A DNA stretch of 64,000 nt from Actinocatenispora thailandica (GTDB lineage: Bacteria; Actinomycetota; Actinomycetes; Mycobacteriales; Micromonosporaceae): positions 3,036,198-3,100,197 of the forward strand of contig NZ_AP023355.1 in NCBI RefSeq assembly GCF_016865425.1, given 5' to 3'. The notes beneath the pieces were generated by a model. The model had not been told where the DNA came from and made no database searches. It saw only the letters and a program-made list of their open reading frames with translations. The position numbers and the translations under genes are program-made. Of the stretch, positions 1,961-8,311 are shown piece after piece; within the stretch, counting starts at the first letter, position 1; each line of letters begins with the position of its first letter.

Positions 1961-4900
1961 GTGCATGACGATCGTGTCCTGGTCGAGGCGCGCCTCGACC
2001 GGGCGATGAACCAGTGGATCCGGCCGGCGATCTACACCGCGACCGCGCCGCTCACCGTCGAGGTCTGGCACGTACCGGACGAGCCCGGTCCGGGCGGCGC
2101 GCCGATCGCCGCGGACCCGGTGCAGGTGGCCGAGGCGCTCGCCGCGGACTACCAGCCGATGCCGATCGGTACCGCCTGGGGCCGGCCGTGGTCGACCAGC
2201 TGGCTGCGGGTGCGCGGCGAGGTGCCGGCGTCGTTCGCGGGCGAGCGGGTGGAGGCGGTGTTCGACCTGGGCTTCAGCGGCGGCCCGGGCTTCTCCGCCG
2301 AGGCGATGGCCTACGACCAGGCGGGGGTGCCGATCAAGGCGCTGCACCCGCTGAACCGGTACCTGCCGGTGGCCCGGCCGGCCGCCGGCGGCGAGCGGGT
2401 CGACCTGCTGCTGGAGGCGGCGGCGAACCCGCAGATCTCGATGGGGATCGAACCCACCCAGCTGGGCGACAAGTACACCGCGGGCGACGCGCCGCTCTAC
2501 CAGCTGCGGGCCGCCGACGTGGCGGTGCTGGACGAGACGGTGTTCGCGCTGGTCGCGGACGTGGACGTGCTGTCCGAGCTGATGCACGAGCTCAGCGTCG
2601 AGGACCCGCGCCGGCACGAGATCCTGCGCGCGCTGGAGCGGATGCTCGACACGATCGACCTGCACGACGTGCCGGGTACCGCGGCCGCCGGCCGCGCCGA
2701 GCTGGCCGAGGTGCTGTCCCGCCCGGCGAACGCGTCGGCGCACCGGATCTCCGCGGCCGGTCACGCGCACATCGACTCGGCGTGGCTGTGGCCGCTGCGC
2801 GAGACGGTACGCAAGTCGTCCCGGACGTTCGCGAACGTCACCGCGCTCGCCGCGGAGTACCCGGAGCTGGTGTTCGCCGCCTCCCAGGCGCAGCAGTACG
2901 CCTGGGTGAAGAAGGCGCAGCCGGCGGTCTGGGAGCGGATCAAGCAGGCGGTCGCGGCCGGCAACTGGGCGCCGGTCGGATCGATGTGGGTCGAGTCGGA
3001 TGCGAACCTGCCCGGCGGTGAGGCGCTGGTCCGCCAGATCACCCAGGGCAAGCGGTTCTTCGCACAGGAGCTGGGCGTGGACACCCGCGGCATCTGGCTG
3101 CCCGACTCGTTCGGCTACACCGCCGCGTTCCCGCAGATCGCCCGGCTGGCCGGGCTGGACTGGTTCCTGACCCAGAAGATCTCCTGGAACCAGGTCAACC
3201 GGATGCCGCACCACACGTTCTGGTGGGAGGGCATCGACGGCACCCGGATCTTCACCCACTTCCCGCCGGCCGACACGTACAACGGGACGTTCGCCGGCGA
3301 CGAGCTGGCCCGCGCGGTGCGCAACTACGCGGAGAAGGGCGCCGGCACGATCTCGCTGCTGCCGTTCGGGCACGGCGACGGCGGCGGCGGCCCCACCCGC
3401 GAGATGCTGGAGCGGGCCCGCCGGCTGCGCGACCTGGAGGGCTCGCCGAAGGTCACCATCGAGCACCCGGACGAGTTCTTCGCCGCCGCCCGCGCGGAGT
3501 ACCCGGACGCGCCGGTGTGGTCCGGCGAGATGTACCTGGAGCTGCACCGCGGCACGTTCACCTCGCAGGCGAAGACCAAGCAGGGCAACCGGTTCTCCGA
3601 GCACCTGCTGCGCACCGCGGAGCTGTGGGCGGCGACCGCGGCCGTGCACGCCGGGGCGGACTACCCGTACGAGGCGCTGGACGAGCTGTGGCAGACGGTG
3701 CTGCTGCACCAGTTCCACGACATCCTGCCGGGTTCCTCGATCGCCTGGGTGCACCGCGAGGCGCGGGAGACCTACGGCCGGCTCCGGGAGCAGCTGACCG
3801 GGTTGATCGACGCGTCGACGCGGGCGCTGGGCGACGGCGACGGCGGGCTGCGGGTGTTCAACGCCGCTCCGACCGACCGCGCCGAGGTCACCGCCGTACC
3901 GGCCGATCTGGCCGCGACGGCGGGGCTGGCCGCCGACGCGGCGCAGAAGCTGTCCGACGGCAGCGTCGCCGCGTTCGCCACCGTACCGGCGCTGGGCGTC
4001 GGCACCGTGGCGCCGGACCTGCCGGCCGGCGGCGCCGTGACCCCGTCCACTGTGGACGGGCTGGTGCTGGACAACGGGCTGCTGCGGGTCACCGTCGACG
4101 AGCGCGGCCTGATCACCTCGGTGTACGACCACGCGCACGGCCGCGAGGTGCTGGCCCCCGGCAGCTACGGCAACCTGCTGCAGCTGCACCCCGACCACCC
4201 GAACAAGTGGGACGCCTGGGACCTGGACAAGCACTACCTGCGCCGGCACACCGACCTGACCGAGGCGGAGTCGGTCGAGGTGGTCGAGCGGGGCCCGCTG
4301 CTGTCCGCGATCCGGGTGGTGCGCCGGTTCGGCGAGTCCACCGCGACGCAGACGCTGGTGCTCGCCGCGGGCAGCCGCCGGCTGGACGTGCGGACCGAGA
4401 TCGACTGGCGCGAGTCGGAGAAGGTACTCAAGGCGGCGTTCCCGATCGACGTGCACGCGGAGCGGGAGTCGGCCGAGATCCAGTTCGGTCACGTGCACCG
4501 GCCCACGCACACCAACACGTCGTGGGACGCGGCCCGGTTCGAGGTGTACGCGCACCGCTGGATCCACGTCGGCGAGCCCGGCTACGGCGTCGCGCTGGTG
4601 ACCGACTCGACCTACGGCCACGACGTGCACCGCGCCACCCGGGACGCCGGCGGCACGACCACCACGGTACGGCTGTCGCTGCTGCGCGCGCCGCACAGCC
4701 CCGATCCGCACACCGACATCGACACCCACACCTTCAGCTACGCGCTGGTGCCGGGTGCCGAGATCGGCGACGCGGTGGCCGAGGGGTACGCGCTGAACCT
4801 GCCGCTGCGGGTCGCGGCGGCCGGCGCCACGCCGGATCCGTTGGTACGGCTGGACAACCCGGCGGTGGCGGTGGAGGCGGTCAAGCTGGCCGACGACGGC

Positions 4901-5113
4901 TCCGGCGACGTGGTCGTCCGGGCGTACGAGTCGCGGGGCGGCCGGGCCGACGTCTCGCTGCGTCCTGGCTTCGCCGCGACTGCGGTCACCGAGGTGGATC
5001 TGCTGGAACGCCCGCTGGACGACGGCGCCGCGGACCTGCTCGACGCCGACGGCACGGTGCGGCTGACGTTCCGGCCGTTCCAGATCCGCACCCTGCGGCT
5101 GCGCCGCGGCTGA
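1961..5113 (+). CDS. Alpha-mannosidase, glycoside hydrolase family 38
   Basis: A 1,050-residue GH38 enzyme that hydrolyses terminal alpha-mannose, probably in the cytoplasm since no signal peptide is present. Metal ligands are visible in HAHIDSAWLWPLRET (His270 and Asp272), and the nucleophile motif WLPDSFGYT places the catalytic Asp at 382. Downstream lie the family's KISWNQVNRMPHHTFWW, LLPFGHGDGGGGPTREMLER and LWQTVLLHQFHDILPGSS motifs, then the all-beta C-terminal domains. Length matches the family. The start is GTG 1961. It is divergent from the GH67-like gene, so both may serve glycan breakdown. A strong hairpin follows its stop. Confidence 0.95.
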   Translation: MHDDRVLVEARLDRAMNQWIRPAIYTATAPLTVEVWHVPDEPGPGGAPIAADPVQVAEALAADYQPMPIGTAWGRPWSTSWLRVRGEVPASFAGERVEAVFDLGFSGGPGFSAEAMAYDQAGVPIKALHPLNRYLPVARPAAGGERVDLLLEAAANPQISMGIEPTQLGDKYTAGDAPLYQLRAADVAVLDETVFALVADVDVLSELMHELSVEDPRRHEILRALERMLDTIDLHDVPGTAAAGRAELAEVLSRPANASAHRISAAGHAHIDSAWLWPLRETVRKSSRTFANVTALAAEYPELVFAASQAQQYAWVKKAQPAVWERIKQAVAAGNWAPVGSMWVESDANLPGGEALVRQITQGKRFFAQELGVDTRGIWLPDSFGYTAAFPQIARLAGLDWFLTQKISWNQVNRMPHHTFWWEGIDGTRIFTHFPPADTYNGTFAGDELARAVRNYAEKGAGTISLLPFGHGDGGGGPTREMLERARRLRDLEGSPKVTIEHPDEFFAAARAEYPDAPVWSGEMYLELHRGTFTSQAKTKQGNRFSEHLLRTAELWAATAAVHAGADYPYEALDELWQTVLLHQFHDILPGSSIAWVHREARETYGRLREQLTGLIDASTRALGDGDGGLRVFNAAPTDRAEVTAVPADLAATAGLAADAAQKLSDGSVAAFATVPALGVGTVAPDLPAGGAVTPSTVDGLVLDNGLLRVTVDERGLITSVYDHAHGREVLAPGSYGNLLQLHPDHPNKWDAWDLDKHYLRRHTDLTEAESVEVVERGPLLSAIRVVRRFGESTATQTLVLAAGSRRLDVRTEIDWRESEKVLKAAFPIDVHAERESAEIQFGHVHRPTHTNTSWDAARFEVYAHRWIHVGEPGYGVALVTDSTYGHDVHRATRDAGGTTTTVRLSLLRAPHSPDPHTDIDTHTFSYALVPGAEIGDAVAEGYALNLPLRVAAAGATPDPLVRLDNPAVAVEAVKLADDGSGDVVVRAYESRGGRADVSLRPGFAATAVTEVDLLERPLDDGAADLLDADGTVRLTFRPFQIRTLRLRRG

Positions 5114-5159: not shown

Positions 5160-5561
5160 TCAGGTCCCGGCGCGCCGGATGCGGATGCCGTCGACGGCGC
5201 CGGCCGGCCGGCCGCCGGCCGCGAGCACCGCGGCGAGCCGGCCGCTTCGATCCACCTCGTCCGGCGCCGCGTACTCCAGCACCAGGGTCCCCGACGGGCC
5301 GCCTGCGGCGCCCAACGCCCTCCGGTACGGTCGTCGCCGCGTCGATCCGCACGCCTGCCCCGTCCCCCGATTCCGTTGCGGCGTCGACTCCGGTATCTCG
5401 GCCGGGGCTGCTGGCGATGGCCGTTCTCACCGACTCGGGCGCGGGACGCCAGCCGCGTGCCCGAGCGCCGTCGCGGAGTGCACGATGGTGTGGCTCCCGT
5501 CACGATCCGGGCGTGCCGTGGTGCGGCAGCCGGCCGGGCGGCGGAGATGATCGGCAGGCAC
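5160..5561 (-). pseudogene. Possible frame-disrupted small gene, function unknown
   Basis: The roughly 500 bases between the mannosidase and the MFS gene contain no intact gene, but protein-like minus-strand segments can be stitched across two frame changes. They run from a GTG at 5561 (VPADHLRRPAGC..., DGSHTIVHSATALG) to GWRPAPESVRTAIASSPGRD and GVRIDAATTVPEG, and then GTLVLEYAAPDEVDRSGRL to a TGA at 5160. Third-position GC is high in each segment. The first change needs one added base and the second needs one removed. I recognise no family. It may be a decayed gene or chance open frames. Confidence 0.3.
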
Positions 5562-5611
5562 CGGTTCGGCCGTGGACGCCGTACGGTCCGGCGACGGAAT
5601 GTGGGGCAGGT

Positions 5612-6741
5612 ATGCGGCGGGATCGGCTGGGCGCGTCCGGCGTGTTCGTGGTGCACGGCGCGGTCACCGGCACGTTCGCCACCCGGGTGCCGTGGCTCGC
5701 CGACCACGTCGGCGTCGGTACCGGCCAGCTCGGCCTGGCACTGCTGTTCCCGGCGATCGGTGCGATCGGTGCGATGTCGTTCACCGGCCGGCTGCTGCAC
5801 CGCTACGACGGCCGGCGGGTCACCCGGGTCCTGCTGGGCTGCTGGTGCGCCGCGCTGCTGCTGCCCGCACTGGCCCCGAACCTGCCGGCACTGTGCGCGG
5901 CGCTGCTGATCTACGGTGCGGCCTCCGGGATGGCCGACGTGGCGATGAACGCCGAGGCGGTCGCCGTCGAGCAGGCAGTCGGCCGGTCGATCATGTCCGG
6001 ACTGCACGGGCTGTGGAGCGTCGGCGGGCTCGCCGCCTCCGGGGTCGGCGTGCTGGCCGCGGCCCTGAACGTGGACGGCCGGCTGCACTTCGCGGTACTG
6101 GCGGCCGTGCTGCTGGTGCTCGGCCAGTTCGCGGCCCGGCTGCTGCCGCCGGTACGGCCCCGGCCGGACGCGGTCGAGCCGCCCGCGTTCGCACTGCCGC
6201 CCCGCCCGGTGCTGCTGCTCGGGCTGCTCGGGTTCTGCGCGGTGTTCGGTGAGGGCGCCGGCTCGGACTGGGCGGCCAAGTACCTGACCGACGTCGCCCA
6301 CGCGCCGCAGGGCGTCGCGGCCGGCGCGTACACCGGGTTCGCGTTCGCGATGGCTGCCGGCCGGCTGGTCGGTGACGGCGTGGTCAACCGGATCGGGGTG
6401 GTCGGCACGGTACGGATGGGCGGCATCCTCGCCGCCGCCGGCGCGGTGCTCGTCGCGGTGTCCCGCCAGGCGGCACCGGGCATTCTCGGGTTCGCGCTGC
6501 TCGGCGTCGGGGTGTCGGTGGTGGTACCGCTGACCTTCACCGCGGCCGGCTCGGCCACCAGCCATCCGGGGCACGCGATCGCCGGCGTCGCGACCATCTC
6601 GTACGGCGCCGGGTTCGCCGCGCCGGCGGTGATCGGCGGTATCGCCGGCGCCTCCTCACTGTCCGTGTCGTTCGTGGTGGTGGCGGTGCTGACCGGACTG
6701 ATCGCGGTGGGGGCGACCCGCTTCGCCCCCGCCGCCGCTGA
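5612..6741 (+). CDS. MFS transporter (YbjJ/fucose-permease-like); stop codon out of frame
   Basis: Twelve-helix major facilitator with ATG 5612 preceded by GGGGCAGG. It begins MRRDRLGASGVFVVHGAVTG and contains the characteristic AAYGAASGMADVAMNAEAV-like segment and EGAGSDWAAKYLTDV, typical of YbjJ-type sugar-like MFS proteins. The frame does not stop where the protein should end. It stays open through the next gene and into the folD frame, to 8311. A TGA at 6739-6741 lies one frame off, just after the run cgcccccgccgccgc. One extra C there would give a natural tail (...FAPRRR). The end coordinate therefore assumes that missing base. Substrate is unknown. Confidence 0.8.
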
Positions 6742-6835
6742 GCCGCCGGCGGACCCTCCGGCATCCGTGCCGGCCAGCCGGTGCCGTGAGGGCCGGCCCC
6801 GCAGTGCCGCGACACCTTGCGAGCCCGGCCGGCAG

Positions 6836-6861
6836 TTGCCGGGTACCGGAGCACCCGGCAA
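6836..6861. terminator. Hairpin between MFS and cyclohydrolase genes
   Basis: Perfect 9-base inverted repeat TTGCCGGGT / ACCCGGCAA around an 8-base loop, 23 bases upstream of the ATG at 6885. It may terminate the MFS transcript or act as a leader structure for the folate pair. Confidence 0.55.
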
Positions 6862-6884
6862 TCCGGCGCACGTAGGCTCGCCGC

Positions 6885-7487
6885 ATGCAGAGTGTCGACG
6901 ACTGGCTCGCCGAACTGGGGTCCGCGGCGCCCGCGCCGGGCGGCGGCGCCGCCGCGGCGATGACCGCCGCGATCGCCGCCGGACTGGTCGAGATGGTGGC
7001 CAACCTGACCACCGGCCGCACCAAGTACGCGGCATACGAGCCGGCGACCACCCGGATCCTGGCCCGCGCCGGGCAGCTGCGGACCGAGGCGGTCGCACTC
7101 GTCGGCCGGGACGCGGCGGCGTTTCGCGAGCTGATGGCGACCTACCGGACGGACCGCTCCGATCCGGGCCGGGCCGCGGCGATCCGCGCCGCGACGGTGG
7201 CCGCCGCCGAGCCGCCGCTGGCGATCGCGGCCGTGGCCGCCGAGATCGCCGACCTGGCCGCCGAACTGCCCGGCCGCTCCAACCGGACGGTGCTCTCCGA
7301 CGTCGCGGTCGCGGCCAGCACGGCCGCCGCGGCGATCGAGTCCGCCGCGATCAACGTCGAGATCAACCTGGCCGCGCTGCCCGAGCCGGACCGGGCGCCG
7401 CTCGCGGCGCGGCTCGCCGCGGCCACCGACCGCCTTGCCCCGGCCCGCGAGCTGGCCGGCCGGCTGCGCGCGGAGCTGTCGTCGTGA
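6885..7487 (+). CDS. Cyclodeaminase/cyclohydrolase family protein (FTCD_C / FchA-like)
   Basis: A 200-residue all-helical protein of the formiminotransferase-cyclodeaminase C-terminal family. It starts MQSVDDWLAELGSAAPAPGG, and the glycine-rich PAPGGGAAAAMTAA and VANLTTGRTKYA motifs are typical. Family members either deaminate 5-formimino-THF or, as in FchA/Fch enzymes, hydrolyse 5,10-methenyl-THF to 10-formyl-THF. No histidine-degradation gene is nearby. The next gene is a folD-like dehydrogenase that starts inside this stop codon (GTGA overlap), so cyclohydrolase is the better guess. That choice is inferred from context. Confidence 0.85.
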   Translation: MQSVDDWLAELGSAAPAPGGGAAAAMTAAIAAGLVEMVANLTTGRTKYAAYEPATTRILARAGQLRTEAVALVGRDAAAFRELMATYRTDRSDPGRAAAIRAATVAAAEPPLAIAAVAAEIADLAAELPGRSNRTVLSDVAVAASTAAAAIESAAINVEINLAALPEPDRAPLAARLAAATDRLAPARELAGRLRAELSS

Positions 7488-8311
7488 CCGGCCGGCTCAT
7501 CGACGGCCGGGCGATCGCCGCGGCGCTGCGCGCCGAACTCGCCGACCGGGTCGCCGCCGCGCCGGTCCGGCCGTGCCTCGCGATCGTGGTGCCGACAGCG
7601 GACGAGGGCGCCGCCTGGTACGTGCGGCAGCTGTCCCGCACCGCCGAGCGGCTCGGCATCGAGTGCCGGGTGGTCGGGCCGCCGGTCGGCGCCGACGAGC
7701 TGGTCGACCGGCTGGCCGAGCTGTCCGCCGACGACACCGTGCACGGCGTGCTGTGCCAGACACCACTGCCAGCCGGCGTCACGCCGGTGCAGGCGGGCAG
7801 CGCGATCGACGTGGCGAAGGACGTCGACGGCGCCAACCCGCGCTCGGCCGGGCTGCTCGCCGCCGGGGCCAGCGCCTACCCGCCGGCCACCGCCGCCGCG
7901 GTGCTGCACCTGCTGCGCGCCGAGGGGGTCGAGCTGGCCGGCCGGAACGCCGTCGTGGTCGGCCGGTCCACCGTGGTCGGGAAGCCGGCGGCGACGCTGC
8001 TGCTCGCCGAGCAGGCCACCGTCACCGTGTGTCACTCTCGCACCCGGGATCTCGCCGAACACACCCGCCGGGCCGACGTGCTGGTCGCGGCGGTCGGCCG
8101 GGCCGGGCTGCTCGGTGCCGAGCACGTCGCGCCCGGCGCGGTGGTCGTCGACGTCGGGACCAACCCGACCCCGGACGGTGGGCTGACCGGCGACGTCCGC
8201 ACCGACGAGGTGGTCGACGTCGCCGCCGCCGTCACCCCGGTACCGGGCGGGGTCGGCCCGGTCACCACCGCCACGCTGCTCTCGCACGTGGTACACGCCG
8301 CAGGAGTCTGA
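7484..8311 (+). CDS. folD: FolD-family methylenetetrahydrofolate dehydrogenase, catalytic Lys replaced
   Basis: A 275-residue FolD relative, GTG 7484 overlapping the preceding stop by four bases. Family motifs present are GVLCQTPLP, KDVDGANPRSAGLL, the NADP-binding NAVVVGRSTVVGKP, TVTVCHSRT and the C-terminal VTPVPGGVGPVTTATLL. The Y-V-x-x-K helix of FolD, whose lysine drives cyclohydrolase chemistry, reads Y46-V-R-Q-L50 here. The usual PCTP motif reads YPPAT. Dehydrogenase function is plausible but cyclohydrolase function is doubtful, and the overlapping FchA-like partner could supply it. It is probably a paralogue of a canonical folD elsewhere. Confidence 0.88.
   Translation: MTGRLIDGRAIAAALRAELADRVAAAPVRPCLAIVVPTADEGAAWYVRQLSRTAERLGIECRVVGPPVGADELVDRLAELSADDTVHGVLCQTPLPAGVTPVQAGSAIDVAKDVDGANPRSAGLLAAGASAYPPATAAAVLHLLRAEGVELAGRNAVVVGRSTVVGKPAATLLLAEQATVTVCHSRTRDLAEHTRRADVLVAAVGRAGLLGAEHVAPGAVVVDVGTNPTPDGGLTGDVRTDEVVDVAAAVTPVPGGVGPVTTATLLSHVVHAAGV

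What the first reader, a model, noticed from the sequence alone, without database searches (positions are those of the whole stretch)
6885..8311. Split methylene-THF dehydrogenase/cyclohydrolase: FchA-like protein fused by overlap to a lysine-less FolD
Seen: the FolD-family protein has Y46-V-R-Q-L50 where the family has Y-V-x-x-K, and YPPAT in place of PCTP; the other FolD motifs are intact. Its GTG overlaps the stop of an FTCD_C/FchA-family gene. Known: the FolD/MTHFD lysine is needed for cyclohydrolase but much less for dehydrogenase activity, and FchA/Fch proteins of this second family are stand-alone methenyl-THF cyclohydrolases. Inference: the two activities have been divided between two co-translated proteins, possibly as a complex.
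Basis: partly seen in the sequence, partly recalled or inferred. Interest (0 to 1): 0.78.

Follow-up and report, generated by a model that had tools for sequence, protein, structure and literature searches.

The report
Two-protein split of folate enzyme FolD
In some actinobacteria the folate enzyme that normally does two steps has lost the lysine needed for the second step, and a neighbouring gene appears to do that step instead, in some genomes as the only route that was found.

Summary
FchA-like (6885-7487) and FolD-like (7484-8311) genes overlap by 4 nt; the FolD has Leu50 where FolDs have the cyclohydrolase lysine, and PATA for PCTP. It belongs to one clade (FolD'; 100/100), found in 42 of 298 genomes of the order. 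In 42 of 42 the Lys is Ile/Leu and FchA is present: 35 adjacent on one strand, 5 unlinked, one close on the opposite strand, one only a fragment. In 24 of 42, FolD' is the only FolD found and no formate-THF ligase is found, so FolD' plus FchA look like the route to 10-formyl-THF. In 13 the pair lies within 10 kb of soxA. Published E. coli FolD K54N keeps ~19% dehydrogenase and no detectable cyclohydrolase. The split itself is known from clostridia; clostridial FolDs beside FchA also lack the Lys (12 of 13). New variant of a known kind. A complex is untested. Exceptions: Lys FolDs beside FchA in other clades, and another Lys-less FolD clade often without FchA nearby.

The parts
6885..7487 (+). 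FchA-like gene (FTCD_C family, P0001), predicted methenyl-THF cyclohydrolase
   Evidence: PF04961 156.5 bits; NF045657 FchA model 132.2 bits, below its 275 cut-off; best solved relative 7vg4, methenyl-THF cyclohydrolase, E 2.9e-27; PGGG, D76, F80, R96, P111, N133, D139, N157, N161 intact, but T135 where 7vg4 and most relatives have Asn, and T86 and L83 at two other conserved places
7484..8311 (+). Lys-less FolD (FolD', P0002), predicted monofunctional methylene-THF dehydrogenase
   Evidence: PF00763 and PF02882; FolD structures to E 4.5e-59; inside a clade of 22 FolD' rows at 100/100
7484..7487 (+). GTGA overlap: GTG start of folD' over TGA stop of fchA
   Evidence: sequence; the same 4-nt overlap in 18 of 25 gene-called same-strand pairs, window included
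7619..7633 (+). codons of Y46-V-R-Q-L50; L50 stands where FolDs have the cyclohydrolase lysine
7877..7891 (+). codons of YPPAT (132-136), in the place of the PCTP motif region

Best explanation
A two-protein module for 5,10-methylene-THF to 10-formyl-THF. FolD' oxidises methylene-THF to methenyl-THF with NAD(P)+ and cannot hydrolyse it, because the catalytic Lys is Leu/Ile. FchA, made from the overlapping upstream gene, hydrolyses methenyl-THF to 10-formyl-THF. In the window's genome the module runs beside a canonical bifunctional FolD; in 24 of 42 genomes with FolD' it appears to have replaced it; in 13 it sits with sarcosine oxidase genes, where it would oxidise the methylene-THF made from sarcosine, with PurU releasing formate. 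Shown by computation: gene pair, Lys loss, co-occurrence, absence of another detected FolD, cluster. Inferred: the activities, the direction of flux, translational coupling. Untested: a physical complex.
For: Lys absent in 42 of 42 FolD' genomes; FchA in 41 of the 42 by genome search plus a C-terminal fragment in the last, G033; Fisher p 1.4e-36 over 298 genomes, not corrected for kinship. Named loci: 5 of 5 Lys-less FolDs have FchA within 10 kb, 0 of 75 Lys FolDs do (actinobacterial FchA queries). In 6 genomes (5 unlinked, one on the opposite strand) FchA is kept although the two genes are not an operon. 24 of 42 have no other PF00763 match, and none of these 24 has an FTHFS match. A second FolD was read in 17 of the 18 genomes with more than one: Lys in 17 of 17, no FchA within 1.5 kb; the 18th is the window's own, also with Lys. 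E. coli K54N: ~19% dehydrogenase, no detectable cyclohydrolase (PMC5688156, passages). Residues shared by FchA proteins are mostly intact. In family f16, sox clusters L098, L099, L102 and L112 lack both genes where L051 and others have both.
Against: No assay. P0001 scores well below the NCBIfam FchA cut-off and departs from its relatives at 83, 86 and 135. H268 is a new conserved basic residue in FolD' (21 of 22) and could in principle take a role. Methenyl-THF can hydrolyse spontaneously (stated in PMC5688156), so dependence on FchA is not proved. Two sox clusters have FchA without FolD' (L101, L109). FchA also occurs beside Lys FolDs of other clades, and another Lys-less clade often lacks FchA. 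The window's genome shows no good PurU match (best 50.1 bits, 33%) and no SoxA at E <= 1e-80, so its C1 source here is unknown.
Confidence: 0.85

Rival explanations
1. FolD' is still bifunctional: another residue (for example the conserved H268) replaces the lysine, and FchA only adds capacity.
For: H268 in 21 of 22 FolD' and 7 of 8 clostridial FchA-linked FolDs, Asn or Gln in 46 of 46 Lys FolDs. Lys FolDs beside FchA (L065, L066, L068, L071, L197) show that FchA can be present without Lys loss.
Against: At thresholds of 80% basic in FolD' and at most 40% in Lys FolDs, only positions 56 and 268 gain a basic residue. In this clade Lys loss was not seen without FchA in the genome. K54N in E. coli has no detectable cyclohydrolase.
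Confidence: 0.07
2. The FchA-like protein is a formimino-THF cyclodeaminase or acts on another folate, and the neighbourhood is coincidental; methenyl-THF hydrolyses spontaneously or through the canonical FolD.
For: The Pfam family FTCD_C holds cyclodeaminases, and P0001 is under the FchA model's cut-off. In the window's genome a canonical FolD could do the step.
Against: Best solved relative is a methenyl-THF cyclohydrolase, ahead of two cyclodeaminases (99.5 against 57.7 and 52 bits); two of three relatives tested score 212 bits on the FchA model, the third 138.1, all under the 275 cut-off. In 24 genomes no canonical FolD and no FTHFS was found.
Confidence: 0.05
3. FolD' is a decaying or repurposed paralogue with no methylene-THF dehydrogenase activity.
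For: In this genome it is a second copy; the Lys and PCTP changes alter active-site motifs.
Against: Tyr46, Gln92, Asp115 and the GRSxxVGKP nucleotide motif residues are invariant in 20 of 20 aligned FolD'; outside those 20, L082 has Ala for the Gln and L045 has Thr for the Lys of that motif. It is the only FolD found in 24 of 42 genomes.
Confidence: 0.03

Closest known systems
FolD plus FchA of Clostridium perfringens (Aluri, Sah, Miryala, Varshney 2016; title seen in reference lists; its content is recalled)
   Same: As recalled, dehydrogenase and cyclohydrolase on two proteins of the same two families. Clostridial FolDs beside FchA also lack the Lys (12 of 13), and the 8 compared share Ala139 (8), Val/Ile260 (8) and His268 (7) with FolD'.
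   Different: The signature differs (YERxA-like, Gln lost, PCTP mostly kept, against WYVR[SQ][IL]-like, Gln kept, PATA). The second tree puts the clostridial set with clostridial Lys FolDs, away from FolD', but one origin is not rejected (p-AU 0.318). I did not see the C. perfringens sequence.
fhs-fchA-folD clusters of acetogens (Acetobacterium woodii, PMC10472528, passages; C. autoethanogenum, PMC9040625, passages)
   Same: fchA beside folD.
   Different: Wood-Ljungdahl context with fhs and metF; here FTHFS is found in 5 of 42 FolD' genomes.
Bifunctional FolD (PF00763/PF02882)
   Same: Both domains, Tyr, Gln, Asp and nucleotide motifs.
   Different: The catalytic lysine is missing; no cut-off is reached among the 25 NCBIfam models shown of 34.
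Actinobacterial sarcosine clusters glyA-soxBDAG-sdaA-purU (PMC3534580, passages)
   Same: Much the same gene set surrounds fchA-folD' in 11 gene-called loci.
   Different: The passages name no fchA or folD in those clusters.

Membership tests
FolD family (PF00763 + PF02882) | both domains over the curated cut-off | tested here: met
   81.5 bits (cut-off 32.8) and 187.8 bits (cut-off 27)
Bifunctional FolD | YxxxK lysine of cyclohydrolase | tested here: not met
   Leu50; Lys in 75 of 80 named loci
Bifunctional FolD | other catalytic residues (Tyr, Gln, Asp) | tested here: met
   Y46, Q92, D115 present
Bifunctional FolD | NCBIfam FolD cut-off | tested here: not met
   best 264.7 bits against 421; none of the 25 shown (of 34) is reached
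FchA methenyl-THF cyclohydrolase | FTCD_C domain | tested here: met
   156.5 bits, cut-off 24.5
FchA methenyl-THF cyclohydrolase | NCBIfam NF045657 cut-off 275 | tested here: not met
   132.2 bits for P0001; three relatives 138.1, 212.3 and 211.9
FchA methenyl-THF cyclohydrolase | residues conserved with the solved 7vg4 enzyme and relatives | tested here: inconclusive
   PGGG, D76, F80, R96, P111, N133, D139, N157, N161 kept; P0001 departs at 83, 86 and 135. Which residues are catalytic was not established here.
FchA methenyl-THF cyclohydrolase | enzymatic activity | not testable with these tools
   needs assay
Split FolD/FchA system | FolD without cyclohydrolase activity | not testable with these tools
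   inferred from Lys loss and published K54N data
Split FolD/FchA system | FchA in each genome that has this FolD | tested here: met
   42 of 42 FolD' genomes, one as a fragment
Split FolD/FchA system | rule 'no Lys, then FchA' for Lys-less FolDs of other clades | tested here: not met
   separate YER clade: FchA within 1.5 kb in 2 of 7 loci; G233 and G265 are not among the 56 FchA genomes
Split FolD/FchA system | the pair can stand in for bifunctional FolD | tested here: met
   24 of 42 genomes with no other FolD and no FTHFS found; genomic inference only
MtdA methylene-THF dehydrogenases | MtdA family match | not tested
   P0002 matched only the two FolD families in Pfam; MtdA was not sought in the genomes

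The most novel reading that the evidence does not exclude
Having FchA frees FolD from its cyclohydrolase step, and FolD then loses the lysine repeatedly, in actinobacteria and separately in clostridia, with parallel changes (Lys to aliphatic, G139 to Ala, M260 to Val, Asn268 to His) that mark monofunctional FolDs. In members of at least six actinobacterial genera the split pair, possibly passing methenyl-THF between coupled proteins, has replaced the usual bifunctional enzyme.
Probability: 0.4. Interest if true: 0.7.

Novelty: new variant of a known kind. Interest (0 to 1): 0.62.

Why it matters
FolD is usually treated as one bifunctional enzyme, and this protein matches, below their cut-offs, models named 'bifunctional'. 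Here the sequence predicts a dehydrogenase only, with the second step moved to a neighbour, and in 24 genomes nothing else was found by the searches made that could do either step. It gives natural separation-of-function FolDs, a residue signature to correct annotation, a gene pair for C1 engineering, and a place to test whether two enzymes that replace a bifunctional one pass the unstable methenyl-THF between them.

Tried and rejected
Considered and rejected: misalignment hiding a lysine (the residue lies in a conserved stretch, and Lys is missing in 42 of 42 genomes read); a real MFS-FolD fusion (the open frame 5417-8311 crosses fchA out of frame; not tested in relatives); a sarcosine role for the window's own pair (no SoxA at E <= 1e-80; best PurU match 50.1 bits).

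Inconclusive: the first tree (89 rows; 2 changes of the Lys state) had FolD' and the clostridial FolDs on one side of a branch at 64/49. For the second tree I dropped 21 of those 89 rows (long-branch, partial or redundant; the Paenibacillus row and four of the 12 clostridial rows among them) and added 11; it separates the two with 3 changes. AU tests reject no shared origin (first tree: clostridial+YER 0.228, FolD'+YER 0.42; second tree: FolD'+clostridial 0.318, FolD'+YER 0.231, clostridial+YER 0.243); a fourth test did not finish. The number of Lys losses is open. The 46 Lys FolDs were picked as Lys FolDs, so their 46 of 46 at position 50 is by choice; the other columns were not chosen. The phylum search (133 of 396 genomes match) mostly brought Lys FolDs, because deep-branching ones score almost as high; 29 loci besides the window's own were read: 26 Lys, none with FchA within 1.5 kb; 3 Lys-less, 1 with FchA adjacent and 2 (G060, G021) with it elsewhere in the genome; the rest were not read. 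SoxA and FolD' are only weakly associated over the 298 genomes (p 0.052). No promoter or terminator match (the scan does not cover other promoter types). Nine paper searches found nothing on this actinobacterial pair (listings, plus passages of ten papers); a paper on FolD family evolution does not mention FchA in its main text (PMC11064299, term search). Subscription papers are mostly not held. No structure was predicted, because model coordinates could not be measured here.

Full report
WHAT IS THERE. The window carries an FchA-like gene at 6885-7487 (+) and a FolD-like gene at 7484-8311 (+) that overlap by GTGA. The first matches FTCD_C with 156.5 bits; the second matches both FolD domains. 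Its best solved relatives are FolD structures (E 4.5e-59), and in those alignments L50 falls on the lysine of YVxxK. The gene before them encodes an MFS transporter and the one after them an EamA transporter, so the local neighbourhood does not point to a pathway. The genome has one FTCD_C match and a second FolD, 2.7 Mb away, with Lys and PCTP.

IS LYS LOSS A RULE IN THIS CLADE? P0001 was searched in 298 genomes of the order: 56 have a match at E <= 0.001. P0002 was searched in the same set: a gap between 231.7 and 196.9 bits separates 42 genomes with a close relative (FolD') from the rest. All 42 were read: none has Lys; the residue is Ile or Leu. FchA is in 41 of the 42; the last, G033 (74% complete), has an FchA C-terminal fragment at a contig end. 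By the coordinates pairs are adjacent on one strand, one is about 1 kb apart on opposite strands (G214), 5 are unlinked (G021, G060, G234, G254, G293, all genus g25; the g25 rows in the tree, G021, G060 and G214, group with named Nocardia), and one is the fragment. Of 25 gene-called same-strand pairs, 18 overlap by 4 nt; the other 7 overlap by 8 or show gaps of 23 to 272, at least two of them with a shortened FolD call. Fisher's test gives 41/1/15/241, p 1.4e-36, without correction for kinship. The 15 FchA genomes without FolD' include the aromatic-degradation group below.

NAMED RELATIVES. A scan of named genomes kept the best 80 loci. The 5 without Lys (Nocardia mexicana, N. xishanensis, N. 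caishijiensis, Paenarthrobacter nitroguajacolicus, an actinomycete MAG) all have FchA within 10 kb; of the 75 with Lys none does, judged with actinobacterial FchA queries at E <= 1e-6. A family search over the whole genomes of 32 of these loci finds FTCD_C in 5: the three Lys-less ones that were included, and two whose listed FolD has Lys (Paenibacillus lignilyticus, an Izimaplasma).

REPLACEMENT OF THE USUAL ENZYME. A PF00763 search of the 42 FolD' genomes finds a single match in 24 of them, and that match is FolD' (all 24 are listed as at least 96% complete; genera g4, g5, g14, g38, g20 and g25, in four families). FTHFS, the other route to 10-formyl-THF, is found in 5 of 42, none of them among the 24. 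In those 24, FolD' and FchA are the only candidates I found for the two steps; MtdA-type dehydrogenases were not sought. In 17 of the 18 genomes with more than one FolD a second copy was read: Lys in 17 of 17, no FchA within 1.5 kb; the 18th is the window's own, also with Lys. Four of the 18 have a third copy; of these only that of G243 was read (L064, Lys-less YER type).

SARCOSINE CLUSTER. SoxA was found in 56 of 298 genomes at E <= 1e-80, not in the window's genome. 13 genomes have both SoxA and FolD', and in 13 of 13 the two lie on one contig within 10 kb (coordinates). The association across genomes is weak (p 0.052): 29 FolD' genomes have no SoxA match. In the example L051 the cluster holds SHMT, SoxB, SoxD, SoxA, SoxG, a dimethylglycine-oxidase-like protein (DAO, FAO_M, GCV_T), serine dehydratase and PurU. 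Clusters L098, L099, L102 and L112 of the same family have the same kinds of genes without fchA and folD', and L101 and L109 have fchA with no FolD beside it. A published account of such clusters in Arthrobacter and Corynebacterium lists glyA, soxBDAG, sdaA and purU (PMC3534580, passages). In these clusters the pair would turn methylene-THF from sarcosine into 10-formyl-THF, and PurU would release formate; this is inference. The window's genome has no comparable PurU match.

MECHANISM. In E. coli FolD, K54N keeps about 19% dehydrogenase activity and shows no detectable cyclohydrolase (PMC5688156, passages). The human-numbered active site is Tyr52, Lys56, Gln100, Leu101, Asp125, Gly273, Gly276 (PMC3368264, passages); FolD' keeps the Tyr, Gln and Asp and loses the Lys. 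I recall, and did not see, that E. coli K54S lacks cyclohydrolase with high dehydrogenase activity. Comparing 22 FolD' with 46 FolDs picked for having Lys: position 139 Ala 22 of 22 against Gly 46 of 46; position 137 Ala/Ser 22 of 22 against Pro 46 of 46; position 260 Val 22 of 22 against Met 43 of 46; position 268 His 21 of 22 against Asn 39 and Gln 7 of 46. No new conserved Lys stands in for the lost one; besides position 56, H268 is the one gained basic residue. P0001 keeps most residues shared by FchA relatives and the solved cyclohydrolase 7vg4 (PGGG, D76, F80, R96, P111, N133, D139, N157, N161), but has Thr at 135, where 7vg4 and 93% of the linked set have Asn, and departs at 83 and 86.

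OTHER SPLITS. In 196 Clostridia genomes 69 have an FTCD_C match; of the 30 loci returned, 13 show a FolD within 1.5 kb, and 12 of these lack the Lys (Ala or Ile); the 13th, L208, has a gap there. The 8 compared share Ala139 (8 of 8), Val/Ile260 (8 of 8) and His268 (7 of 8) with FolD'. The second of two trees places them with clostridial Lys FolDs and gives three changes of the Lys state; the first gave two and left FolD' and the clostridial set together at 64/49, and AU tests reject no common origin. Monofunctional FolD plus FchA is known for C. perfringens from a paper whose title I saw; its findings I recall.

EXCEPTIONS. A third Lys-less clade (YERRL-type, Gln also lost) is in 6 of 112 genomes of family f16 at E <= 1e-70 (7 loci), and in G243 of another family (L064); FchA lies within 1.5 kb in 2 of the 7 loci, and none was found in the 10.5 kb of L097. 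Lys FolDs of another clade lie 0.1 kb (L068) to 1.8 kb (L065, L066, L071) from FchA in clusters with an MTHFR-like gene and, in some, DesA/LigM-like and LigB genes, and a Paenibacillus FolD beside FchA keeps Lys (L197). FchA therefore permits Lys loss but does not force it, and the rule 'no Lys, then FchA' holds for the FolD' clade, not for all FolDs.

VERDICT. The division of labour is a known kind; the actinobacterial version, its distinct signature, its apparent replacement of bifunctional FolD in 24 of 42 genomes and its place in sarcosine clusters were not found in my paper searches. Complex formation is untested.

Noticed in passing
window 5417-8311 (+): The MFS transporter frame (Pfam match within 5612-6859) meets no stop and stays open, in the frame of folD', across fchA to 8311 (964 codons). 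Probably a chance open frame at high GC or a sequencing indel at the end of the MFS gene, not a fusion.
   Followed up: partly
L064 7401-8372, L067 7252-8172, L097 4843-5712, L261-L267: A separate clade of FolD-like proteins has lost both the Lys and the Gln of the active site (YERRL, LRPLP, PST), in several loci next to MTHFR-like and PurU genes or FTHFS, often without FchA nearby; its function is unexplained.
   Followed up: partly
L101 4066-4620 (-), L109 6348-6962 (-): Sarcosine oxidase clusters with an FchA gene but no FolD beside it.
   Followed up: no
L065, L066, L068, L071, L096: Clusters with an MTHFR-like gene, a Lys-containing FolD and FchA, in some with DesA/LigM-like O-demethylase and LigB genes: perhaps C1 disposal from methoxylated aromatics.
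   Followed up: partly
L082 (G033:C88 contig end), 5227-6454: A FolD' on one strand and the end of an FchA followed by the start of another FolD' on the other strand, at a contig end; looks like an assembly artefact or an inverted duplication.
   Followed up: partly
window 1961-5113 (+): GH38 alpha-mannosidase gene upstream of the pair.
   Followed up: no
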